42,557 nt of DNA from a virus: IMG/VR virus record IMGVR_UViG_3300037193_000697, positions 1 through 42,557 of that record, one strand, 5' to 3'. The position numbers were made by a program, and so were the translations under genes. This document shows, in pieces, positions 18,512 to 30,576 of the stretch (position 1 is its first letter; each line of letters begins with the position of its first letter). The notes under the pieces were generated by a model, which saw only the letters and a program-made list of their open reading frames with translations, made no database searches and was not told where the DNA came from.

Positions 18512-20137
18512 TCAGACGGCGGTTCCGATTCCGCACTCCACCACGTCGGCGGCACCGGTGCGACCGGCGTTGCAGACGGGGAGCGTGACGCGGTGGGCCT
18601 TGCCGCAGGTGTTGGCGACGAGGAGCCCCTGCTCGAAGAACAGCGCCGTGTAGACGTTGGTCGCGAGCGAGGCGGCGTCGTACACCGCGTTGAGCGTGAT
18701 GACGTCCGAGGTGCCCTTGACGAAGGTGCCAGCGGGGTAGATCAGGGCGTCGAACGTAGCCGGGTAGCCCTCGTTGGCAGCGAAGTCCGCCAACTCCTGC
18801 CAGCCGTACACGTACTGGACGTTCATGTTCCGCGCCGAGAACTCGGCGGAGATCATGGCGTCCGTGATGGCCTTCACGTCACGACCGGTGCGGAGAGCGA
18901 GGTCGTTGCGGACCGCACCCCGGACCCAGAACGGGACGACCACTTCGAGGGTCTCGTTGAGACCCATCTTGTACTCCTGACGGAGCCGGTCCCCGATGAG
19001 TTCGAGGTTGCCCAGCGTGGACGCGGCGGTCGAGCCGAAGTTCGGCACGGTCAGCGCGGCAGCAGTCAGCGCGAGGATTCGGTCGATGACCGACACGTTG
19101 ACCTTGTGGGCGTGGGCGACCATCGACCCGGTGAGGTACCGGTTGACCAGTTCCGGGTAGGCGGCGTTGGTCAGGATCGGGGCCTTGATGCACAGACCCA
19201 CGGCGTCGAGCCGGACCTCGGTGAAGGGCGGGCACTCGACCTCGTAGCAGGGCTTCGTGGTCCCGGCGATGGCCTGCGCCTCGGTCTGGGAGAAGCCCAC
19301 GTCGGTGTAGATCGACGCGAAGTCCGGTCCCTTCGTGAAGTTGAGGCCACCACGGCTGATGTTGATCTCGGGGATCGACAGGATGCCGTCGAGAGTCTCG
19401 CCGGTGACGCAGAGGTCGTACAGCGTCTCGGAGGGGGCACACCATCCACCAGCGGCGGTGAGCGAGCCCTTCGGGAGCCGGGCCTCGTTGGAGGCGTAGG
19501 ACAGGACCGACATGTCGTTGCCGTGAGGCTTGACGGTCAGTTCCTCCGGGAACTCCATCTTGAACTTCGCGACACCGTAGTGCTGCAGGTTCACGGACTG
19601 GCCGTCACCGGAGGGGACGCCGAACCCGCGCATCCGGGCGACGAGCGCCTCTCCGACCTCGGACATGTCGGTGAGGTTCTGGCCGGTGGAGAAGTCCGGC
19701 ACGTCGGCGGCAGCGGTGATGGTCACCGGGCTGGGCGTCTTCGCGGGGGACTGGGGGCGGGCGACCTTCTTCGCCAGCGCGGCGACACCCTTCGCCTTGG
19801 CCTTGACCGGCTCGGCAGCCGCCTCGGGCTCGGGCTCCTCCTCGGGCTCCTCATCCTCCGGCTCCTCCTCGACCTCCGGCTCCGGCTCGGTCTGGGAGAA
19901 GCGGTCGCGGAGAGCGGCGGCGCGGGTGGCACGCGCGGCAGCGGCCTCCTCGCGGGCGGTGCCCTCGGCGGTCACGGCGGCGAGGTGGTCAGCGAGCGCC
20001 TCTGCGGCCTCGATCTGCTCGTCGGTCGCCTCGTCGGTGAGGGCCTCCACGGCCTCGACGGCGGCGGTGCGCACGGACTCGGTGTAGGCGGCGAGGGCCT
20101 CTGCGTCGAGTTCGGCGAAGTTCTTGTTGATGTCCAC
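18512..20137 (-). CDS. HK97-type major capsid protein with fused scaffold-like N-terminus
   Basis: A 541-residue protein. Residues 1-150 are helical and acidic (a run near 84-103 of almost only Glu, Pro and Asp), then Lys/Ala-rich, the expected form of a scaffolding delta-domain removed by the maturation protease. The mature part begins near VPDFSTGQNLTD and contains capsid-fold segments (LPKGSLTAAGGWCAP, VVVPFWVRGAVRNDLALRTG and the C-terminal strand after GTSDVITLNAVYDA). It starts with GTG, with AAGGAG 5 nt upstream. The protease is encoded two genes upstream of this gene's leader. Confidence 0.93.
   Translation of the reverse strand: MDINKNFAELDAEALAAYTESVRTAAVEAVEALTDEATDEQIEAAEALADHLAAVTAEGTAREEAAAARATRAAALRDRFSQTEPEPEVEEEPEDEEPEEEPEPEAAAEPVKAKAKGVAALAKKVARPQSPAKTPSPVTITAAADVPDFSTGQNLTDMSEVGEALVARMRGFGVPSGDGQSVNLQHYGVAKFKMEFPEELTVKPHGNDMSVLSYASNEARLPKGSLTAAGGWCAPSETLYDLCVTGETLDGILSIPEINISRGGLNFTKGPDFASIYTDVGFSQTEAQAIAGTTKPCYEVECPPFTEVRLDAVGLCIKAPILTNAAYPELVNRYLTGSMVAHAHKVNVSVIDRILALTAAALTVPNFGSTAASTLGNLELIGDRLRQEYKMGLNETLEVVVPFWVRGAVRNDLALRTGRDVKAITDAMISAEFSARNMNVQYVYGWQELADFAANEGYPATFDALIYPAGTFVKGTSDVITLNAVYDAASLATNVYTALFFEQGLLVANTCGKAHRVTLPVCNAGRTGAADVVECGIGTAV
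19540..19553. repeat. dispersed palindrome copy 7 (GTTCC-TCCG-GGAAC)
   Basis: Perfect arms and a 4-nt spacer, inside the capsid gene (encodes EFPEEL). Confidence 0.7.
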
Positions 20138-20269: not shown

Positions 20270-20482
20270 TCACGGATCGCGGAGCAGGCCCTTCCCGATG
20301 TGGTTCTCCACGGCGATCTGGATCGCCCCGAAGACGATCGTGAGGATCAGGAGGACCGCTCCGTACTGCCGCTCGTCCATCGGGAGGATCGAGAAGGAGT
20401 CGAGCAGTTCGGTCACGGCGAACGCCGCGCTGCCCTGAACCGCAGTACGGGCAGGGCGGGCGACGACAGCGGGGGTGTTCAT
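20270..20482 (-). CDS. holin candidate, single membrane segment
   Basis: A 70-residue protein overlapping the endolysin stop by 4 nt (ATGA). A polar N-terminus is followed by one hydrophobic helix at about 40-58 (YGAVLLILTIVFGAIQIAV) and a short charged tail (ENHIGKGLLRDP). Small one-span proteins directly after an endolysin gene are typical holins, which collect in the inner membrane and open it at lysis. A longer frame is open upstream, but translational coupling supports this start. The reading could also be a simple membrane protein. Confidence 0.75.
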   Translation of the reverse strand: MNTPAVVARPARTAVQGSAAFAVTELLDSFSILPMDERQYGAVLLILTIVFGAIQIAVENHIGKGLLRDP

Positions 20483-21393
20483 CCGGTAGGCCCCTCTCCG
20501 AACTCGGCGAAGACTTCTCGGACGCCGCGCTTCACGGTCTCCACGTCGATGTTGCCGTCGCCGCCGATCTTCTGGACGATCAGTTCCGCCAACTTCTCGG
20601 GGTCGAGGGTGTTCGCGGAGATGGTCTTCACGAGGTACGCCCCGTCGAGGGTGTCGAGCAGGCGGGCGGGGACGGGCGGGGTCACGCTGCGGTCCACCCA
20701 CCGCTGGTGGGTCACCCCGAACAGGCGACCGTGGATGTCAGCGAGCATCTTCGATTCTGCGGGGGTCATGTCTTCTCCCTGTGGTCCGTTGGTGAGGGCG
20801 CGGCGTACACCGTCCCGGGTGCGGGCGGAGAGGCCGTCCTTCTTGCGGTCGACCTTGCGGTCGGTCCACTCGTAGTGGTCGAGGTTCGAGCCTGCTCCTC
20901 CGTTGGGGCTCCACCCCTCCGCCTCACAGATCGCGGCGGCAGCGAGGATGCCCGACTCGACCTGCTCGTCGGGCATCGTGCCGTCGTCGGGGTGGTAGTG
21001 GTACTCCAACCCCCAGAACAGCGGGTTGCCGTCGAGGTCCTCGACAGTCCCTCGGAACGACCCGTTGTACGTGCCGGACTCGATGGCGCGGTAGACCCGC
21101 TGGTCACCCTTCCCGGCGTGGTTGCAGTTCCCCCACCCGACGGCGGTGACCTGCCCTGCGCGGTGAATCCCGAGGTGGCAGAGCGGACCGGCCAGCGTCG
21201 AGTGCCCGTAGACCAGCACGCTGTTCTGCTGGACGGCAGACACCGACAGACCGCTCATCGCGGTCCAGTGGTGCATGATCCCGCGCGGACTCCACCCACC
21301 GGATGTGGTCCGGTTGGGCCATGTTGAGTGGCGGAGGAACCGTCCACCGAGCCAGTCCTTCAGCGCCTCCTCGAACTCCGAGGGGCTGACCAT
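20479..21393 (-). CDS. endolysin, N-acetylmuramoyl-L-alanine amidase
   Basis: A 304-residue protein with an amidase_2/PGRP-type zinc domain in residues 1-190: GIMHHWTA (zinc His near 41/42) and a late His with Lys and Asp (HYEWTDRKVD, His173, Lys180, Asp182) as in this family. It cleaves the bond between muramic acid and the stem peptide. Residues 200-304 are helical and may serve wall binding or oligomerisation. It is unusual in lying between the head protease and capsid genes, so lysis genes share the late head transcript. The start overlaps the region after a 48-residue protein gene. Confidence 0.9.
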   Translation of the reverse strand: MVSPSEFEEALKDWLGGRFLRHSTWPNRTTSGGWSPRGIMHHWTAMSGLSVSAVQQNSVLVYGHSTLAGPLCHLGIHRAGQVTAVGWGNCNHAGKGDQRVYRAIESGTYNGSFRGTVEDLDGNPLFWGLEYHYHPDDGTMPDEQVESGILAAAAICEAEGWSPNGGAGSNLDHYEWTDRKVDRKKDGLSARTRDGVRRALTNGPQGEDMTPAESKMLADIHGRLFGVTHQRWVDRSVTPPVPARLLDTLDGAYLVKTISANTLDPEKLAELIVQKIGGDGNIDVETVKRGVREVFAEFGEGPTG

Positions 21394-21395
21394 CT

Positions 21396-21542
21396 CTACT
21401 TCGTCAGGGTCTTGTACGAGCCGCCACTACGGATCACCGCTGCCTTGGCCTCGATCTCGGTCCGGTAGACCTTCTTCGTGCCCTTGGGGTCGGTGTACTC
21501 GTAGGACTGCTGGGCCTTGGTCTTGCCGCAGTTACATCCCAC
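21396..21542 (-). CDS. 48-residue GCNCGK-motif protein
   Basis: A 48-residue protein starting MGCNCGKTKAQQSYEY, from a GTG with AGGAG 6 nt upstream; it overlaps the end of the large fusion gene by 11 nt and ends 3 nt before the endolysin start. The N-terminal C-x-C pair plus Lys-rich body (DPKGTKKVYRTEIEAK) suggests a small metal- or nucleic-acid-binding protein. A similar GCNCGK motif closes the 68-residue protein at 30668-30874. Small CxC proteins at this point of head operons are common in actinophages, but their role is not known to me. Confidence 0.8.
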   Translation of the reverse strand: MGCNCGKTKAQQSYEYTDPKGTKKVYRTEIEAKAAVIRSGGSYKTLTK

Positions 21543-24390
21543 CTGTTGCTCCTTCGACTCGGGCCGCGAGCGCGGCCACCCGCTCCCGGCGCTTCTGCCG
21601 GGCCTCGATCGCGTCCGCCACGGCAGCCGCGAACACCTCCATGTTGAACTCCTCGGGCGGTGCGACCTGCTGCACCATCCCGGCAGCGACCAGCGCCACC
21701 TGACGCCCGTTGGACGCCGCCACCCGAACCGGGAAGCCGGGAGTGTTCACCGACAGGGCAGCGACGAGTTCGAGGTTGTCCCCGATCTCTCGCCAGTCGC
21801 CGGAGATGGCCGACGCGCGGAGCGTGGTGATCTGCTCGTCGGTCGCGCCGGGGCGCACCCATCCCGCTACCCAGATGCCGTGCTCGTCGTCACCGACCGC
21901 GACATCGCTGACTGCCGTGGAGGTCGAGTCGTAGTGCTCGATCGCCGCGCGCCAGCGCAGGCCGGGGGCAGCGTGACCGCCGCCGACGGAGAGCACGCCG
22001 GTGCGGACGAACGAGCCGTCGTCGAGCAGCACGGAGCCGGTGGTGAAGTAGCCGTAGTTGGTCTGGCTGCGCGGGGGCTCCACACACACGCCGTCGAACC
22101 CGATGTGGCAGGTGCCCCACTGGGCGATGTGGCCGAAGACCCGGCCCTCCTCGGTGACGGTGAGGGGGGTGGGCTCGGTCAGGTTGGGGTTGCTGAACCA
22201 TGCGGCGGGACCACGGTGGCCCGCCCCGGCGGCGACCAGCGTGACGGCCACGCCCTGCTCCTTCTCGGCGTCGAACGGCATCTCCTCCGCTGCGGCCTTG
22301 TGCTCCCCGGGCCAGATGCCGAGGGCGTCGTGGTGCCACTGCGCGCAGATTTGGTTGATGTACCGGAGGTCCTCCGGGGAGTTCTTCGCGATCTTCTCCC
22401 CGACGAGGACACGACAGCGGTTGAAGTCGCCACCCTTGCCCCAGCCGATCTTGATGAAGCCGGGCTCCCCGGGGCGGGTCCAGTAGTCGTGGATGCGCTT
22501 GGTGTCGGCGGGGTGGGTGATCCAGCCCTTGCCGCGCTTGAACTCCGCCGACGCGGTGATCGCCTCCGGGGGCTCCTCGCCCAACTTCCGGTACGCGCCG
22601 CGCAGCACCTTCTTCGCGGCCTCGATCTTCTCCGAGGGGGCGTCGGTCTGATTCAGCCGACCAGCGGCGGCGTGCACACCGGCACGGGAGAGCGCACCGT
22701 CGGGCTCACGGATCGGCAACTTGTGGTCCGACTTGTTCTCCTTGTCGTCGGACAGGTGCACGATCGTGGACTTGTACCACTGCTCGGGGGTGAAGCGGGA
22801 GGCGGAGCCGTCCCACGACTTGTCGCTGATCCCGGCTGCGACCAGTTCCATCTCGCCGTCGAGGAAGCCCTCGGGGGCCTCACCGAGCGCGACCCACGCC
22901 TCGGCGAACGCGGGGATCGCGACGATGGAGGCAGACGCGATGCGCGCGGAGGTGAAGGTGACCTTGCCCGACTCCTCGTCGAACTCGAACTCGGCGTCGT
23001 CGGCGTCCACGGAGACACCGAACCGTCCGAACTCGGCGATCATCCCGACCACCTCGTCGGCAGTGTCGGACTGCTGCAGGAAGACGCCGGTGCCGCGCAT
23101 CTCGCCGTCGACCCGGGCGATGTGGTCGATCCGGGCGACGGTGACGGAGCCGTTGTGGCCCTCGCCGGACGCCTTCTGCCACGTCAGCGGGACCGGGAGG
23201 TCACGGAAGGTGAGGGCACCCTCAGCGAACTGGCGACCGTCGCCACTCCACTTCCCCTCGGGGGCGAGGACGCCGTGCCACGGGACGGCGGCAGCAACCA
23301 CCGTCTCCTCTTCGTTCTCGGGCATCTGCTCTCCTAGCGCGTACTCGGTCTGCGTCTCACCATCCCATACGGCGAGGCGGTCGAAGGTGATCGTGGAGAC
23401 TTCGGCGGCGGCGGTGTCGATGGCCTGCCAGTCGTACTCGTCCACGGTCTCCTCGGTCATGTAGCCGATGGTCACGTGGGGCGTGAAGTCCGGGTACTGC
23501 TCGACGGAGTTGAACGCGGCGGAGATGGTCTCGTCGCTCAGCAGGGCCTCGCGCAGTTCCACGGCGGGGTCGGCGTCGAGGAACCACACCTCGGCACCCT
23601 CGTCCCCGAGCGTGCCCCGCTTCTGGACTCCGCCCTCGAACAGCGGGCCGGGAGCGGAGGCGGCGATGGCCTTCACGGCGGCGTGCACCGCCTCGCGGTC
23701 GACGCCCTCACCCTCACCCAGCCAGAGCAGGGTCATGTGCTTCTGCTCCGGTCCGACCTCGTGAGTGGGGTCGGCCTGCTCGGGCAGCGCCATGATCGTC
23801 AGGGATGTCTGCTTCTCGACGGCAGCAGTTTCCATGTGGAAACTCGCCTCCTCCGGGTAGGCCGGAGCGAGAGCACACCGGCAGTTGATCCACAGGTCGG
23901 GCCGCACGCCCGGGTATCCGGGGTACGGCATCTCCTCGCCGCCGACGATGAAGGGCTCACCGGGCGGTCGTTGCTGTCCCTCGACGAGACGGTGGGTCTC
24001 GCGTACGTCCCCATCGTGCATCGTCACCCACTCCATGACGAGGAACTCCGGGTCGTTCGATGCCGCCGCGAGGGTGGCGGCGTTCAGGATCGCGGTCGCC
24101 AGCCACGTCGCGATCAGTTCGGGGTCGGAGGTGGGGCTGGTCTCTTCCAGCGCGTTGCCGATCTGGCGGCGGAACAGTGTCCACTGCGAGGGAGCACCCT
24201 GCCCGCCCTCCTGCTGGTAGACCGTGAAGAAGGCGTCGTCGATCTCCTCCATCAGCGCCAGCGTCCAGTCAGCCAGCCCGTCACCGAGGTCACCGACGGC
24301 CTCCTCGACGTGCTGCAGCAGCCGCGCTTCGAGGGATTCCTGATCTCTCCGGCGCTTCGCTGCGAACTCGTCGAGCGCGAGGACGATCAT
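21532..24390 (-). CDS. MuF-like/2H phosphoesterase/capsid maturation protease fusion
   Basis: A 952-residue protein with several domains. About 1-180: MuF-like minor capsid region ending MHDGDVRETHRLVEGQQ and WINCRCALAP. About 195-352: 2H phosphoesterase (LigT/2'-5' RNA ligase-like) with both catalytic HxT motifs, His218 (KHMTLLWLG) and His305 (PHVTIGYM). About 365-505: prohead protease with candidate His412 (GHNGSV) and Ser460 (FGVSVD). About 535-605: DUF6582-like segment. About 612-700: GWITHPADTKRIHDYWTRPG region. About 740-890: conserved protease-associated domain (FGHIAQWGTCHIG, SAISGDWREIG). The start overlaps the portal stop as ATGA. It processes the capsid; the 2H activity is unexplained. 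Confidence 0.9.
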   Translation of the reverse strand: MIVLALDEFAAKRRRDQESLEARLLQHVEEAVGDLGDGLADWTLALMEEIDDAFFTVYQQEGGQGAPSQWTLFRRQIGNALEETSPTSDPELIATWLATAILNAATLAAASNDPEFLVMEWVTMHDGDVRETHRLVEGQQRPPGEPFIVGGEEMPYPGYPGVRPDLWINCRCALAPAYPEEASFHMETAAVEKQTSLTIMALPEQADPTHEVGPEQKHMTLLWLGEGEGVDREAVHAAVKAIAASAPGPLFEGGVQKRGTLGDEGAEVWFLDADPAVELREALLSDETISAAFNSVEQYPDFTPHVTIGYMTEETVDEYDWQAIDTAAAEVSTITFDRLAVWDGETQTEYALGEQMPENEEETVVAAAVPWHGVLAPEGKWSGDGRQFAEGALTFRDLPVPLTWQKASGEGHNGSVTVARIDHIARVDGEMRGTGVFLQQSDTADEVVGMIAEFGRFGVSVDADDAEFEFDEESGKVTFTSARIASASIVAIPAFAEAWVALGEAPEGFLDGEMELVAAGISDKSWDGSASRFTPEQWYKSTIVHLSDDKENKSDHKLPIREPDGALSRAGVHAAAGRLNQTDAPSEKIEAAKKVLRGAYRKLGEEPPEAITASAEFKRGKGWITHPADTKRIHDYWTRPGEPGFIKIGWGKGGDFNRCRVLVGEKIAKNSPEDLRYINQICAQWHHDALGIWPGEHKAAAEEMPFDAEKEQGVAVTLVAAGAGHRGPAAWFSNPNLTEPTPLTVTEEGRVFGHIAQWGTCHIGFDGVCVEPPRSQTNYGYFTTGSVLLDDGSFVRTGVLSVGGGHAAPGLRWRAAIEHYDSTSTAVSDVAVGDDEHGIWVAGWVRPGATDEQITTLRASAISGDWREIGDNLELVAALSVNTPGFPVRVAASNGRQVALVAAGMVQQVAPPEEFNMEVFAAAVADAIEARQKRRERVAALAARVEGATGGM
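23828..23843. repeat. dispersed palindrome copy 8 (GTTTCC-ATGT-GGAAAC)
   Basis: Perfect 6-bp arms and a 4-nt spacer. It falls exactly in the linker (FHMET) between the MuF and 2H domains. Confidence 0.8.
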
Positions 24391-26147
24391 GCGTCGACCT
24401 CCGCGAGCCGGAGCCAGTCGGCCAGCCTCTCCCTCTTGTGGGGGGACTGCTCGGTGAGCAGCGCGAGGCAGTAGGAGTCGAGGACGGGGACGATCTTCTC
24501 CACGTCAGCGATCCCTTCGAGCACCTGCGGTGCGCAGGACCATGCGTCTTCGAGCAGCCGAGACGCGGTGCCGTTGGCCCGGATGAACATGTGGGTCTCG
24601 TAGGCGGGGACACCGGGGGGCTTCCCTCCGGCCTGACGGAGCCGGTTGCCCGCCCGCTCCAGCGCGCGGAAGACCAGCGCCTCGGACGCGGCGACGAGCG
24701 CGGACTCCGAGGGTGTGCGGGGCCGCGTGGGGTGGTCCTCGATCGACGGGGTGGGCTGGGACTCCCGGGGCTGGGACTGGGGAGCCTCGATCTCCAACAC
24801 CACACCGAGGGCACCGAGCGCGGCCTGCACCTGCTCGGGCGTGGCGGAGCCGGTGGCGACCTTGCGCAGCAGCCACCGCTTGAACTCCTCCTCGTCGGGG
24901 AGGTCGTCGGAGTCGAAGCCGTTCTCGCGCAGCAGCGCCATCGCGGAGAGCAGGCCCCGGTCATACAACTCGAACGCCTCCTTGCTGCGGTCGGGGCGCA
25001 GCCGGAGGGCGGAGGTGTCGTAGGTGACCAGCGCGAGGGAGTCGTCGGACAGGGCAGGGCGCAGGTACCCCATCGTGAGCCCGTTGACGATCACGTCGAG
25101 CATCGGCTCCACGTGCATCTTGATGGTGGCTTCCTCGATCTGCCACGCACCCCAGTGGGAGACGCCGTTGGAGGTGCCGCCCCCGGTGCCGCCGTTGGAG
25201 GACATGCCGAGCACCTGCTCGGGTGGGAGGTCCATCCCGAGGGCGAAGCGGCGGATCGCCTCGTTGCGCAGGTCCATCGAGTGCGCGTCGAGTTCGCTCC
25301 AGAAGGTGAGCAACTTCGCCTTGTCGATCGCCTCGTCCGGTGCGGTGACCACGATCGGGACGAGCGCGGAGGGTGACTCCGGGTTCTCGATCGGGGTAAT
25401 CATCGCCTCGGCCAGCGTCAGCATGAACGAGTCGGCCTCGTTGGAGGTGGCGACGGGCTTGCCAGCCTGATCGGGCGGCGGGGGGAAGGTCATGCTCTGC
25501 GGCATCATCAGGATGCCCGCACCGGCCAGACGCGAGGTGACCTGAGCGTAGACATGGCGGGTGAGCCACTCGATCTCCGCGAGGATCGGGAGCAGGGCGC
25601 GGAATGGGGAGTCGGCCTCGATGCGACGGGCGGGGTGCGGCAGCCACAGCCGGATCACCACGTCGTCCTCGGTGAGCGTGATCGCGGCCATGCCGTTGCC
25701 GTAGTTGATCGTCCACGTGTTGCCGGTGACCTGCATCTCGATGCAGGAGACGATCTCCCACACGTCGCCCTGCGGGGTGTGACGCCCGACGAGGTAGCAC
25801 TCACCAGCGATGGTGAAGTGCATCCCGATGGCGTCAAGCATCTGCGCCTGACCGTCCTTGCCGTTGAACAGTTCGGACAGCGCGTCGAAGGCGGGGCCGG
25901 AGGTCTGTTCCATAGGAACGCCGCCGTCGAGGATCGCGGCCTTCAGCACGGCGCGGGAGACGGCGTGGCCGAAGAACTTCGCGGCGAAGCGCGCCTCACC
26001 GCAGATCGCGTAGTGCCGGTAGCACTCCGCCTGCCAGTCCTGCTTCGGCTGGTAGATGCGCGGGGCCTTGCCCGGATACCGGGTCGAGGAGGCGACGAGA
26101 CTCGTCGTTGGGATCACGACGGGATCAGGCTTGCGCGGACGAGGCAT
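24387..26147 (-). CDS. portal protein
   Basis: A 586-residue protein placed between terminase and the MuF/protease gene. The actinophage portal pattern is visible: an N-terminal Pro/Arg-rich start, then YRHYAICGEARFAAKFF, a clip-wing region with LGMDLPPEQVLGMSSNGGTGGGT (the tunnel-loop neighbourhood typical of this family) and a helical C-terminus. The portal forms the dodecameric DNA gate at one capsid vertex. ATG with AGGAG 6 nt upstream. The stop overlaps the next start as ATGA. Confidence 0.93.
   Translation of the reverse strand: MPRPRKPDPVVIPTTSLVASSTRYPGKAPRIYQPKQDWQAECYRHYAICGEARFAAKFFGHAVSRAVLKAAILDGGVPMEQTSGPAFDALSELFNGKDGQAQMLDAIGMHFTIAGECYLVGRHTPQGDVWEIVSCIEMQVTGNTWTINYGNGMAAITLTEDDVVIRLWLPHPARRIEADSPFRALLPILAEIEWLTRHVYAQVTSRLAGAGILMMPQSMTFPPPPDQAGKPVATSNEADSFMLTLAEAMITPIENPESPSALVPIVVTAPDEAIDKAKLLTFWSELDAHSMDLRNEAIRRFALGMDLPPEQVLGMSSNGGTGGGTSNGVSHWGAWQIEEATIKMHVEPMLDVIVNGLTMGYLRPALSDDSLALVTYDTSALRLRPDRSKEAFELYDRGLLSAMALLRENGFDSDDLPDEEEFKRWLLRKVATGSATPEQVQAALGALGVVLEIEAPQSQPRESQPTPSIEDHPTRPRTPSESALVAASEALVFRALERAGNRLRQAGGKPPGVPAYETHMFIRANGTASRLLEDAWSCAPQVLEGIADVEKIVPVLDSYCLALLTEQSPHKRERLADWLRLAEVDA
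25907..25919. repeat. dispersed palindrome copy 9 (GTTCC-ATA-GGAAC)
   Basis: Perfect 5-bp arms and a 3-nt spacer, inside the portal gene (encodes GVPMEQ near residue 77). Confidence 0.75.
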
Positions 26148-26717: not shown

Positions 26718-26897
26718 TCAGTTCCTTCGTTCAGATCGGACGTGCCAGACGCCCGACATCCGTGGACATGGGTAGATCGTGTGCGGACCGTGCTCGATGT
26801 GACGTGTCATCACCGCGTGGATCGCCTCGAAGCGCGACGGGTACTTCACCTTCTGCCCTCCGAGGTGGTTCCGACAACCACAGTCCCCCTTCTTCAT
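26718..26897 (-). CDS. small Cys-containing protein after terminase
   Basis: A 59-residue protein starting MKKGDCGCRNHLGGQKVKYP; the ATG overlaps the terminase stop as TGATG. It has a C-x-C pair, several His and one later Cys (YPCPRMSGVWHV), a layout like a small zinc-binding fold with substrate-contacting Arg/Lys. The same compact pattern occurs in several small proteins of this window. No function is known to me. Confidence 0.78.
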   Translation of the reverse strand: MKKGDCGCRNHLGGQKVKYPSRFEAIHAVMTRHIEHGPHTIYPCPRMSGVWHVRSERRN

Positions 26898-28345
26898 CAC
26901 ACCGCCCGCAGGTGCCTGTTCGTCGGAGCGCGGCGATCTGAGAGCAACTTGTTGGGGTCGGCCACCGTCGAGGGCATCACCCGGTGGGCGAGGGCGGTGG
27001 CTCCGTGCACGCAGGCGTCGACCCGGTTCGGTGAGTCTCCCTCGCCCGGTACCCACGTGGTCTGCTCATCTTCCAGCATCGCGAGGTCTCCCCGCTTGCC
27101 GACGTGCTTGACCCGCTTCTTCTCGTACAGCGCGACGATCGGCTCCGCGCGCAGCGCCTTCCCGCGCCGGGAGTCGACCAACTTGGGGCGACCGATCGGC
27201 ACCCCGCGCTTCTCGGCGGAGGTCTCGATGACGTGCGCGACCATCTCGCCGCCGTAGTTCTTCTCGGCCACGATGTCGTCAGCGGAGAACTCGACGTAGG
27301 CGTCGATCACCTTGTCGCCCCACTGGCCGGGGGAGTAGCGCCCGGTGTAGTCCGCGAGGACGTAGATGCACTTGTCCTCCCCGATCCCGAGGACGACGAT
27401 GCCGGTCTCGTCGGACTTCTTGTTGGCGGTGCCAGCGGGGTCGACGGCCACGACGATGCGGATCAGGTGAGGGGCCTCCTCGACCCACTCGTACATGTCC
27501 CACGCCCACAGAGCGCCCTCGACATCTTCGAGCACCTCGCCGTGGAGTTCTTGCTTGCCGAGCCGGGTGCCCTCGTAGCGGTCGAGGATGGTGCGCTTGA
27601 AGGTGTCCGCGAGGTTGTTCAGGTTCTCGTAGGTGGAGACCCGGTGGACTACAGTGAGGGGGTCGTTGATGAGCGCGCGCATCCACTTCGTCGGCTTCGG
27701 GGTGGAGGTGGCGATGACCTTCGGGTTCTTGCCGATACGAAGGCCGAACAGCATGTTGTCCCAGACCTCGTTGATGAGGGGGTAGTGGGCGGGCTCGTCT
27801 GCCCACGTGAAGCCGGACTGGGGGCCACGGAGGCGGTCGGGCTCCTCGGCGGAGAACCCTTGGCCGATGCAACCGTTGGGCCACGTCAACTTCTTCTTCG
27901 ACGGCTCCCACAGGGGACGCTTGCCCGGGGGCGAGGTCGCGAGGACGCCGGAGACGCCCTCCACCATCGTGTCGCGGAGGTCAGGTCCGGTGGCCGCGAG
28001 CAGCGTGATGCGCGGCGTGATGTTGGTGACCCGGTGGGTGATCTCGGAGCCGGTGCGGGTCTTGCCCGAACCTCGGCCCCCCGAGAGCAGTAGCGTCAGC
28101 CAGTCGTCGCGCCACCTCGGGGGGCGTTGGTCAGGACGGGCGTGCTCCCAGTCCCACTCGCCGTGGGGCTTCCCGTCGCAGGTGAGGTTCGGGCAGTAGA
28201 AGGGTCGCCATGTCGCGCCTTCGTGCTGGCGGAGGAGTTCGAGGGCCTTCTGCTGGGCCTCGGGCTTCCAGTTCTTGAACGCCTCTACGTCTACCGGGAG
28301 GTGTTCACGAGACGCTGGCAGGTCGCGCGGTGGATGCTCAGACAC
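26897..28345 (-). CDS. terL: terminase large subunit
   Basis: A 482-residue packaging motor. With the GTG at 28345 as start (GGTGG 8 nt upstream), Walker A SGGRGSGKT is at 88-96, Walker B with catalytic Glu is FTWADEP (Asp183, Glu184), and the coupling motif TSTPKP is near 213. The RNase-H-like nuclease begins at VAVDPAG (Asp302) and ends with SPNRVDACVHGATAL. A C-x4-C plus two His (residues 51-68) ahead of the ATPase may form a zinc knuckle. In-frame starts at 28423 and 28402 exist, but that region is occupied by another plausible gene. Confidence 0.93.
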   Translation of the reverse strand: MSEHPPRDLPASREHLPVDVEAFKNWKPEAQQKALELLRQHEGATWRPFYCPNLTCDGKPHGEWDWEHARPDQRPPRWRDDWLTLLLSGGRGSGKTRTGSEITHRVTNITPRITLLAATGPDLRDTMVEGVSGVLATSPPGKRPLWEPSKKKLTWPNGCIGQGFSAEEPDRLRGPQSGFTWADEPAHYPLINEVWDNMLFGLRIGKNPKVIATSTPKPTKWMRALINDPLTVVHRVSTYENLNNLADTFKRTILDRYEGTRLGKQELHGEVLEDVEGALWAWDMYEWVEEAPHLIRIVVAVDPAGTANKKSDETGIVVLGIGEDKCIYVLADYTGRYSPGQWGDKVIDAYVEFSADDIVAEKNYGGEMVAHVIETSAEKRGVPIGRPKLVDSRRGKALRAEPIVALYEKKRVKHVGKRGDLAMLEDEQTTWVPGEGDSPNRVDACVHGATALAHRVMPSTVADPNKLLSDRRAPTNRHLRAV

Positions 28346-28449
28346 TTCGCACACCACCAGTTCCCATGAAGAGGGGTCGCCGGAGTGCCGACCGTGAGCC
28401 ATGTGCCACAGCCGCCCGCGCACTTCTGCGTCCAGCGCACCTTCGCCAT
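28291..28449 (-). CDS. zinc-ribbon miniprotein overlapping the terminase start
   Basis: A 52-residue protein starting MAKVRWTQKCAGGCGTWLTV, with C-x3-C (KCAGGC) and C-x2-C (WWCAKC) pairs 20 residues apart, then a basic helix (IHRATCQRL). This is a standard four-Cys zinc-ribbon layout. It runs in a different frame through the 5' part of the longest possible terminase frame, so terminase more likely begins inside it (28345). The ribosome site is weak (GAG). It may regulate packaging genes or bind DNA. Confidence 0.75.
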   Translation of the reverse strand: MAKVRWTQKCAGGCGTWLTVGTPATPLHGNWWCAKCLSIHRATCQRLVNTSR

Positions 28450-29260: not shown

Positions 29261-29989
29261 CTAGGTTACGCGCACCCAGACGGATTCGATCGACTCCGTG
29301 CGCCTCGTACCACCGGCCCACGCGGTCTTGCGCTCGCTCCAACCGGCCTTCCAGCCCTCCGGCGCGGTGTACTCGGAGACCAGCACGGTCGCGCCCGCCT
29401 CCGACCACTCCTCCATTGTGGCCCAGAACCGGTCATGGTTGAACGCGCCCCGGTAGTGCTCGGTCCCGACATACTCCTGCGTGTCGCGGTAGGGCGGGTC
29501 GCAGTAGACCACCACCCCGGGCCGCATCAGCGGGGTGTGGGCGGTGTAGTCGCAGGTTTCCAGATGGAACCTCGCCAGCGCCCTGCCGATCTTCACCACC
29601 GACCTGCGGGCCTGATCGGTGTAGTCGCGGCGCTTCCCGGTGGTGGCGGTGGTGCGGTCTTGGATGTAGCCCCCGAACCACGACCCGCCGTAGGAGCAGG
29701 CGAACCCGGCGAACGATCGCTCGGGTGAGGGGTTGGGGTCGGCGCGCAGTTCGAGCCACCGGGTCTTGGTGAGCACCATCGGCGGCAGCCAGCCGTCCGC
29801 GATGGCCCGCCACATCAGCATCAGGTCGGGGTTGGCGTCGGAGGCGATGGCCTTCGGGTAGTGCGGAGCGGCCCTGAGGAACACCGCGCCGCTGCCGAGG
29901 AAGGGCTCGACGTACATGTCGCCCTCGTGGGCGGTGATGTAGGCCGAGAGGGCTCCGGCGATCTTGGGCTTCGCGCCGAGGTACCTCAC
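29261..29989 (-). CDS. DNA N6-adenine methyltransferase, Dam/D12 class
   Basis: A 242-residue enzyme with the AdoMet motif VEPFLGSGAVF near residues 27-37 and the catalytic DPPY at 164-167 (VYCDPPYRDT), in the order typical of D12-class Dam-like enzymes. The start MRYLGAKPK, from a GTG overlapping the ParB-like stop (GTGA), matches the usual N-terminus of this family; an ATG at 30001 is possible. It would methylate adenine in phage DNA and could protect it from restriction. Target specificity cannot be read from sequence. Confidence 0.92.
   Translation of the reverse strand: MRYLGAKPKIAGALSAYITAHEGDMYVEPFLGSGAVFLRAAPHYPKAIASDANPDLMLMWRAIADGWLPPMVLTKTRWLELRADPNPSPERSFAGFACSYGGSWFGGYIQDRTTATTGKRRDYTDQARRSVVKIGRALARFHLETCDYTAHTPLMRPGVVVYCDPPYRDTQEYVGTEHYRGAFNHDRFWATMEEWSEAGATVLVSEYTAPEGWKAGWSERKTAWAGGTRRTESIESVWVRVT
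29555..29571. repeat. dispersed palindrome copy 11 (GGTTTCC-AGAT-GGAACC)
   Basis: Unequal arms and a 4-nt spacer, inside the methyltransferase gene (encodes RFHLET). Confidence 0.7.
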
Positions 29990-30576
29990 AAGCCGTCCCA
30001 TCCGGCGAGCCGGAGCAGCAACTCGAACTTCTCCCGGTCCCCGACGGCATCCTCGGTCATCTCCCAGAATGCGCGGCGCACGTGCGGGGGGACCTTGAAG
30101 GACAGGGTGGGCCACTGGGCGAAGTCGTCCTCTCCTGCGACCGGAATCTCGGCGAGGTGGGTGAGGACTTCGAGGTCGTTCTCCCGGTAGCCGGTGCCGA
30201 TCAGGGAGTCGGCGTCGTGGAGTTCGTTGAGGATGTTCAGCAGCAGGGCGTTGTCGGGCATCGCGAGCGCGGCGGTGCGGTTGTCGGCCAGCATGATGCG
30301 CTTGGCGTGGTACTGGTCCACATCGAGCAGCACCACGGGCACCTCGGTGGCCCCGAGCGCCTTGCAGGCGAGCCACGTGTGGTTGCCCGCGATGATGTAG
30401 CCGGTCGACGCCTGCACGAAGATGGGCCGGTAGACGCCGTTGGCGACAATGGACTCCTGAATCGCCTCGATGTCGCCGTTGTTGTAATTATCGGGGTGCT
30501 GCTGCACCTCGTCGATGGACTTCAGCAGCGGCTTCAGGTCTTCGTGGGCCTTGGCGGTGCCTCCGAGGTGGATCAT
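29986..30576 (-). CDS. ParB/sulfiredoxin-like nuclease-domain protein
   Basis: A 196-residue protein. Residues 15-100 show the ParB N-terminal fold: IDEVQQHPDNYNNGDIEAIQ, SIVANGVYRPIFVQ, and the motif YIIAGNHTWLACKALG that corresponds to the GxHR box used for nucleotide binding. Residues 100-196 are helical, perhaps DNA-binding. ATG with AGGAG 5 nt upstream. It is coupled by a 4-nt overlap to the Dam-type gene, a pairing frequent in phages where ParB-like proteins accompany methylases. A CTP- or ATP-dependent DNA role is inferred. Confidence 0.9.
   Translation of the reverse strand: MIHLGGTAKAHEDLKPLLKSIDEVQQHPDNYNNGDIEAIQESIVANGVYRPIFVQASTGYIIAGNHTWLACKALGATEVPVVLLDVDQYHAKRIMLADNRTAALAMPDNALLLNILNELHDADSLIGTGYRENDLEVLTHLAEIPVAGEDDFAQWPTLSFKVPPHVRRAFWEMTEDAVGDREKFELLLRLAGWDGL

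What the first reader, a model, noticed from the sequence alone, without database searches (positions are those of the whole stretch)
23335..23808. 2H phosphoesterase domain built into the MuF/protease head protein
Both catalytic HxT motifs (His218, His305) are intact between the MuF region and the protease. 2H enzymes cut or ligate 2'-5' and cyclic phosphodiester bonds, and the anti-CBASS enzyme Acb1, which destroys cyclic nucleotide alarm signals, belongs to this superfamily. If protease cleavage frees the domain inside the prohead, it could be packaged and injected, acting before any phage gene is expressed. It may also repair RNA or be a capsid structural relic.
Basis: partly seen in the sequence, partly recalled or inferred. 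Interest (0 to 1): 0.8.

Follow-up and report, generated by a model that had tools for sequence, protein, structure and literature searches.

The report
Swappable enzyme module in phage head
A phage that probably infects actinobacteria carries, inside the protein that builds and trims its head, a complete enzyme domain of a kind used elsewhere to destroy immune alarm molecules; relatives swap this domain like a cartridge, so it is probably cargo for the next host cell and not a structural part, though nobody has yet shown what it cuts.

Summary
A 952-aa head protein (21532-24390, minus strand) carries a complete 2H phosphoesterase domain (aa 194-354) between a MuF-like domain and a prohead protease. 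Its predicted fold is confident (pLDDT 94) and matches 2H enzymes including LigT, Usb1 and Acb1. Both catalytic His occur in 25 of 25 aligned phage domains; the first HxT motif, independent of the search pattern, in 80 of 80 further relatives.

The packaged-and-injected reading is partly supported and already in print as a prediction (PMC5512222, PMC9503650). Found here: (1) the domain is optional: two Mycobacterium phages have MuF and protease without it. (2) It is exchanged as a cassette: in two phage pairs the flanks are about 97-100% identical and the 2H about 75%. (3) A short motif, [LIVM][VT]A[AS][AGS], sits at domain junctions and also in capsid and portal proteins: a candidate protease site.

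Best explanation: a protease-released, head-packaged effector that destroys a nucleotide signal or RNA in the host. Cleavage, packaging and substrate are inferred. It is not an Acb1 member by profile.

The parts
21532..24390 (-). 952-aa head protein: MuF, 2H, prohead protease and further domains
   Evidence: starts by overlapping the end of the portal gene (24387)
23848..24381 (-). MuF-like domain, aa 4-181
   Evidence: Pfam PF04233 5e-5 below cut-off, PHROG head morphogenesis 1.4e-14, boundaries from AF2
23818..23832 (-). MuF|2H linker, ETAAV (aa 187-191), departs from the strict junction motif
   Evidence: pLDDT <50 at aa 182-193; strict motif at this junction in 16 of 28 aligned proteins
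23329..23811 (-). 2H phosphoesterase domain, aa 194-354
23731..23739 (-). first catalytic motif His218-Met-Thr220
   Evidence: 25/25 and 80/80 relatives keep H and T
23470..23478 (-). second catalytic motif His305-Val-Thr307
   Evidence: 25/25 keep H (Hendrix has Ser in place of Thr); this motif was part of the search pattern
23485..23709 (-). stretch between the HxT motifs (aa 228-302) that corresponds to the exchanged segment in Squash/Hyperion
   Evidence: mapped by alignment (Squash aa 251-327)
23287..23301 (-). 2H|protease junction motif VVAAA (aa 364-368)
22855..23295 (-). prohead protease domain, aa 366-512, Ser460 invariant in 28 aligned proteins
   Evidence: T4 gp21 5jbl Z 10.7; A3 invariant columns
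22831..22845 (-). junction motif LVAAG (aa 516-520)
   Evidence: pLDDT <50 at 513-519
22546..22560 (-). junction motif ITASA (aa 611-615)
   Evidence: pLDDT <50 at 614-626
22225..22239 (-). junction motif LVAAG (aa 718-722)
   Evidence: pLDDT <50 at 698-723
21664..22221 (-). conserved C-terminal domain, aa 724-909, function unknown; the part shared with many mycobacteriophages
21679..21693 (-). motif LVAAG (aa 900-904) near the start of the C-terminal helix
   Evidence: 20 of 28 strict
24387..26147 (-). portal protein, two junction-type motifs (aa 17 LVASS, aa 484 LVAAS)
   Evidence: PHROG portal 1.8e-130
18512..20137 (-). major capsid protein with the same motif at aa 140 (ITAAA), 226 (LTAAG) and 357 (LTAAA)
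   Evidence: PHROG major head protein 9.9e-143
26897..28423 (-). terminase large subunit (context)

Best explanation
The 2H domain is an active phosphodiesterase carried as an optional, exchangeable cargo module in the head protein. MuF brings the polypeptide to the portal/head, the fused maturation protease cuts at the Ala-rich junctions and frees the 2H domain inside the prohead, DNA is packaged around it, and it enters the next host with the genome, where it destroys a nucleotide signal (cyclic oligonucleotide, 2'-5' or 2',3'-cyclic phosphate compound) or an RNA species before phage genes are expressed. Different alleles would suit different substrates. Shown by computation: domain, fold, HxT motifs, optional presence, allele exchange, shared motif. 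Inferred: cleavage, packaging, injection, substrate. My probabilities by step: active 2H enzyme 0.9; accessory effector and not structural 0.8; freed by the protease 0.6; packaged and injected 0.5; target is an immune nucleotide 0.4, RNA 0.25.
For: Fold and motifs; profile against solved sequences, penguinpox cGAMP phosphodiesterase 9bkq best at 1.8e-5. Optional: Gadjet gp13 and KLucky39 gp9 match the family profile in MuF, protease and C-terminal domain but show no 2H hit; of the 130 records none is from Mycobacterium, against 471 Mycobacterium records that share some part of the protein. Exchange: OneinaGillian/Fregley 0.998 / 0.754 / 0.977, MellowYellow/Pureglobe5 0.976 / 0.758 / 0.975 nucleotide identity for N-flank / 2H / C-flank; over about 6.4 kb up to the start of the capsid gene the 2H is the main island of divergence in these two pairs; in MellowYellow/Pureglobe5 the changes begin at ITAA|A and end just before PESLTAAGE. 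Among 6 phages whose MuF is >=98.7% identical to OneinaGillian's (itself included; 7 records), 2 carry one 2H allele and 4 another at 73-74%, with protease >=98.3%. In the 28 records whose MuF is 80-82% identical, 2H falls into 22 at 86-89% and 6 at 75-76%. Processing: the motif occurs 5 times in the window protein (0.16 expected), 96 against 6.0 in 28 aligned proteins; at the MuF|2H junction 16 of 28 and at 2H|protease 10 of 28, against 0.30 and 0.26 under shuffling inside the linkers; in three relatives' genomes 24 against 1.36 in nine portal, protease and capsid proteins, 9 against 6.58 in 128 other proteins. Linkers have pLDDT <50.
Against: No cut site, virion content or activity is demonstrated. 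The motif was chosen after looking at the alignment; only portal and capsid proteins test it independently. The window itself lacks the strict motif at the MuF|2H junction, and 18 of 28 proteins lack it at 2H|protease. With one mismatch allowed the motif is not specific (17 of 28 at one control inside the C-terminal domain). KLucky39's capsid protein has no strict motif. 2H-bearing head-region proteins of other types (SendItCS, ClubPenguin, ReqiPoco6, ReqiPepy6, OhMyWard, Schwartz33, Cantare) have none, and portal-fused Hendrix has one, but not at its 2H junction, so excision is not general. Exchange by recombination is common in these phages and does not by itself prove an arms race; dN/dS in 2H (0.12-0.60 over 11 pairs) shows constraint, not positive selection. 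Hyperion/Squash also differ in other parts of the same gene.
Confidence: 0.5

Rival explanations
1. The 2H domain is made late and acts in the infected cell itself (against late abortive signalling, or on RNA ends); fusion to the head gene only secures late, abundant expression.
For: The gene is in the head operon next to the portal gene; stand-alone or differently fused 2H proteins sit beside terminase and portal genes in other phages, so head-operon placement recurs without MuF fusion.
Against: Repeated fusion to MuF, portal or protease chains and junction motifs flanking the domain fit incorporation into the prohead better.
Confidence: 0.2
2. The domain is a delivered or late RNA-processing enzyme: Usb1-like RNase or 2',3'-cyclic phosphate end-healing enzyme.
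For: Best folds include cyclic phosphodiesterase 1jh6, Usb1, LigT; PMC5512222 section 20 proposes an Usb1-like RNase as one of two options for MuF-fused 2H domains.
Against: No RNA ligase or polynucleotide kinase partner is annotated in the parts of MellowYellow, Hyperion or Kithara read (first 50 kb each; Kithara's one 'RNA ligase' is the 2H protein itself); PMC5512222 reports that these 2H domains were never seen associating with RNA ligases. This speaks against end repair more than against an RNase.
Confidence: 0.25
3. Structural or assembly part of the head, its enzymatic look a relic.
For: It is fused to head-morphogenesis domains.
Against: Both His kept in 25/25 and first motif in 80/80; absent from two homologous head proteins; exchanged while its neighbours stay about 97-100% identical.
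Confidence: 0.05

Closest known systems
2H domains of polyvalent proteins and MuF/portal fusions (PMC5512222; PMC9503650)
   Same: 2H domain fused to MuF or portal in a phage head protein, predicted packaged and injected against nucleotide signals or as an RNase
   Different: The passages read do not mention a protease partner for the 2H fusions, junction motifs, optional presence or cassette exchange
Acb1 anti-CBASS nucleases (PMC9117128)
   Same: 2H fold and HxT/HxT tetrad (Acb1 H44, T46, H113, T115); structural match Z 9.4, rmsd 3.4, 119 aligned
   Different: Profile PF23474 below cut-off; Acb1 is a separate small protein (solved chains of 137-140 residues), here the domain lies inside a head protein; substrate unknown
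Avian poxvirus LigT-like cGAMP phosphodiesterases (9bkq; PMC11410667)
   Same: Best profile match among solved sequences, E=1.8e-5; Z 10.0
   Different: Separate protein of an animal virus; 20% identical in the structural alignment
Actinophage 'capsid maturation protease and MuF-like fusion protein' (GenBank annotation; cluster EG, PMC7302621)
   Same: Same gene place and domain order
   Different: Those names do not mention the 2H domain; other records call 2H proteins 'RNA ligase'
MuF-fused toxins (PMC3482391) and MuF-VIP2 fusions (PMC7302621)
   Same: MuF predicted to carry an enzyme into the head (passages)
   Different: Here the enzyme is internal, followed by the protease and more domains

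Membership tests
2H phosphoesterase superfamily | Two HxT/S motifs | tested here: met
   His218-x-Thr220, His305-x-Thr307; conserved in relatives
2H phosphoesterase superfamily | 2H fold | tested here: met
   Foldseek E 1.1e-6 to 1jh6; Z 12.9, rmsd 5.4, 151 aligned
2H phosphoesterase superfamily | Curated profile above cut-off (PF13563) | tested here: met
   31.9 bits on the slice, 27.3 whole protein, cut-off 27
2H phosphoesterase superfamily | Phosphodiesterase/cyclic phosphodiesterase activity | not testable with these tools
   needs purified protein
Acb1 (PF23474) | Acb1 profile above cut-off | tested here: not met
   15.2 bits on slice, 11.4 whole; cut-off 27
Acb1 (PF23474) | HxT/HxT tetrad | tested here: met
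   Acb1 residues read
Acb1 (PF23474) | Cleavage of CBASS cyclic nucleotides | not testable with these tools
   needs purified protein
MuF-fused head effector | MuF domain in the same chain | tested here: met
   PHROG head morphogenesis 1.4e-14; Pfam PF04233 24.4 bits, below its 29.6 cut-off
MuF-fused head effector | Presence in the virion and injection | not testable with these tools
   needs virion proteomics and infection assays
Prohead protease (T4 gp21 / herpes assemblin fold) | Fold and conserved serine | tested here: met
   5jbl Z 10.7, rmsd 3.6; herpesvirus proteases Z 8.0-9.5; Ser460 invariant in 28; no activity test
ATP-grasp RNA ligase (GenBank label 'RNA ligase' on relatives) | RNA ligase nucleotidyltransferase domain | tested here: inconclusive
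   PF09511 found nothing in the window, but its controls rang nowhere; Pfam scans of the window protein and of 10 of the 24 first-fetched relatives' proteins list no such domain

The most novel reading that the evidence does not exclude
Head proteins of these phages are polyproteins with an exchangeable enzyme slot: the maturation protease releases a 2H phosphodiesterase inside the capsid, alleles with different segments between the HxT motifs are traded between phages to match the nucleotide alarm systems of local hosts, and the enzyme is injected to disarm them before any phage gene is expressed.
Probability: 0.3. Interest if true: 0.85.

Novelty: new variant of a known kind. Interest (0 to 1): 0.6.

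Why it matters
If true, phages would arrive with their counter-defence enzyme already in the cell, ahead of alarm-signal defences that act early. The cassette exchange gives a ready experiment: near-identical culturable phages on one laboratory host (OneinaGillian against Fregley, Kelcole, Tempo, RobinRose on Microbacterium foliorum) that differ in this part of the head region mainly in the 2H allele. The junction motif, if it is the cleavage site, would make head processing in many actinophages predictable from sequence.

Tried and rejected
Chance HxT motifs: rejected by fold, profile and conservation. Acb1 membership: rejected by profile. Structural relic: disfavoured. Positive selection by dN/dS: not found; all 2H values below 1. 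Junction motif allowing one mismatch: too loose, one interior control reached 17 of 28, so I rest on the strict form. Single-sequence search of viral contigs found nothing; the alignment search worked. Capsid protein against solved structures: no hit, so the mature N-terminus could not be read from a structure. Papers on actinophage capsids gave no cleavage site: PMC7150772 has no 'cleav' or 'protease', and in PMC10635136 those words concern purification (passages only). PMC10792529 was an irrelevant hit. Searches for the phage BCSR5 phosphodiesterase and for the short tag of DUF7211 gave nothing useful. No RNA ligase by PF09511, but uncalibrated. No tRNA.

That I found no account of cassette exchange or junction motifs in print rests on the searches and on passages of the papers named; most subscription journals are not held.
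Full report
What is there. The window is a 42,557-base virus record. The ORF at 21532-24390 on the minus strand encodes 952 aa and starts by overlapping the portal gene. AlphaFold2 on 28 aligned proteins (pLDDT 80.7, pTM 0.36, so relative domain positions are not determined) gives separate domains joined by low-confidence linkers at aa 182-193, 355-365, 513-519, 614-626 and 698-723. In order: MuF-like (4-181), 2H (194-354), prohead protease (366-512), two small domains, and a conserved C-terminal domain (724-909) with a helical tail. Portal, terminase and major capsid genes lie around it.

The 2H domain. Pfam PF13563 passes its cut-off. The domain alone folds at pLDDT 94.2, pTM 0.88, and the structural matches are 2H enzymes: Arabidopsis cyclic phosphodiesterase 1jh6 (Z 12.9, rmsd 5.4, 151 aligned), TT0787 (12.3, 3.8, 147), YjcG (12.0, 4.3, 148), rotavirus VP3 phosphodiesterase domain (11.5, 3.3, 130), phage BCSR5 phosphodiesterase (10.3, 3.7, 133), penguinpox cGAMP phosphodiesterase (10.0, 3.8, 136) and Acb1 (9.4, 3.4, 119). 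Several are within one Z unit of each other, so fold does not name the substrate. By profile, the penguinpox enzyme is the best solved sequence (1.8e-5).

Catalytic motifs. In 25 aligned domains (window plus 24 phage records) both His are invariant, as is the first Thr; the second Thr is Ser in Hendrix. In 80 viral-contig relatives the first HxT is present in 80 of 80; the second was part of the search pattern and is no test there. The two sets overlap: at least five isolates appear in both.

Distribution. tblastn finds 130 records at E<=1: Gordonia 55, Microbacterium 46, Arthrobacter 14, Streptomyces 7, Rhodococcus 4, Curtobacterium 2, Brevibacterium 2. Architectures among the 24 fetched: MuF-2H-protease; 2H-protease without MuF in that ORF (Fransoyer, Kithara); 2H behind the C-terminal domain (MelBins); portal-2H (Hendrix); a 2H protein directly upstream of the terminase gene in six (SendItCS, ClubPenguin, ReqiPoco6, ReqiPepy6, OhMyWard, Schwartz33), with DUF7211 in all three of these that were scanned; and a 234-aa protein near the portal gene (Cantare). 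The constant is the head region of the genome.

Optional and exchangeable. Gadjet gp13 and KLucky39 gp9 match the family profile in MuF, protease and C-terminal regions and have no 2H. Among close relatives the 2H is traded: N-flank / 2H / C-flank nucleotide identity is 0.998 / 0.754 / 0.977 for OneinaGillian and Fregley, 0.976 / 0.758 / 0.975 for MellowYellow and Pureglobe5, and 0.984 / 0.807 / 0.844 for Squash and Hyperion. Divergence begins at ITAA|A and ends before PESLTAAGE in MellowYellow/Pureglobe5; in Squash/Hyperion it is confined, inside the domain, to aa 251-327, between the HxT motifs. In about 6.4 kb around, the 2H is the main divergence island for the first two pairs, while Squash/Hyperion have others. 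Squash 2H is closer to OneinaGillian (0.872) than to Hyperion (0.807) although its MuF is closer to Hyperion (0.984 against 0.799), which indicates recombination. Database counts agree: of 6 phages with MuF >=98.7% identical to OneinaGillian's (itself included), 2 carry one 2H allele and 4 another at 73-74%; of 28 records with MuF at 80-82%, 22 have 2H at 86-89% and 6 at 75-76%. dN/dS for 2H is 0.12-0.60 in 11 pairs: constraint, no sign of positive selection by this crude measure.

Junction motif. I noticed in alignment A3 a recurring [LIVM][VT]A[AS][AGS]. Window: 5 in the 952-aa protein (0.16 expected by shuffling), 3 in the capsid protein (0.18), 2 in the portal (0.09), 1 in total in the 16 other window proteins tested. 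Aligned set: 96 against 6.0. MuF|2H 16 of 28, 2H|protease 10 of 28, against about 0.3 each when residues are shuffled within the linkers; eleven interior control segments gave 0-2 strict matches each. In MellowYellow, Hyperion and Kithara: 24 against 1.36 in nine portal/protease/capsid proteins; 9 against 6.58 in 128 others. Portal and capsid proteins alone give 10 of the 24. I read this as a candidate maturation-protease site; it is post hoc for the 952-aa family, independent for portal and capsid, and not proven by any N-terminus. The second capsid site (SL[TV]AAGGW) may lie inside the mature subunit. Other 2H fusion types lack it at their 2H junctions.

Mechanism and rivals. See Best explanation. 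The packaging and injection idea is not new: PMC5512222 section 20 (that section read whole; other passages) and PMC9503650 section 21 (passage) state it for 2H-MuF and 2H-portal fusions. PMC7302621 (passages) notes the MuF-protease fusion in cluster EG and says of a MuF-VIP2 toxin that it is predicted to be in the virion. PMC11410667 (passages) shows LigT-like enzymes cleaving cGAMP and near-universal retention of the His pair in viral forms. PMC9117128 (passages) gives the Acb1 tetrad.

Verdict. A real 2H domain, of a kind already proposed in print. What is added is that it behaves as an optional, traded cassette with conserved catalytic motifs, flanked by a motif shared with the other prohead proteins. 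That raises the effector reading and makes it testable in culturable phages, without establishing substrate or delivery.

Noticed in passing
L011, L014, L016, L018, L019, L021 (gene upstream of the terminase): 2H proteins there carry DUF7211 in all three scanned (L011, L014, L018), a tag of about 25 residues, seen as HYG[VI]KGMKWGVRR in L011 and L014; PHROG matches to the same stretch include a virion structural protein family. Possibly a head-targeting tag.
   Followed up: partly
window 21664-22221: The C-terminal domain (aa 724-909) has invariant H806, H819, D821, S863, D865, W866 and is the part shared with hundreds of mycobacteriophages often annotated as maturation protease; it may be a second enzyme domain.
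   Followed up: no
window 20479-21393: An endolysin gene sits between the head protease and the capsid gene; the MuF-2H-protease relatives fetched have only a small ORF there.
   Followed up: no
window 29261-30376: DNA methyltransferase gene upstream of the terminase on the same strand.
   Followed up: no
L107 1737-2102, L108 2269-2757, L025 1772-2134: HIT-family nucleotide hydrolase/binding genes in three 2H-bearing phages, directly after the MuF gene in MelBins; a possible partner in nucleotide metabolism.
   Followed up: no
L019, L020, L023, L025: GenBank calls these 2H proteins 'RNA ligase'; in Kithara and MelBins the label covers a head-protease-type chain. The name is misleading.
   Followed up: partly
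L107 19398-20936: Hyperion carries another gene annotated 'phosphoesterase' between tail and connector genes.
   Followed up: no
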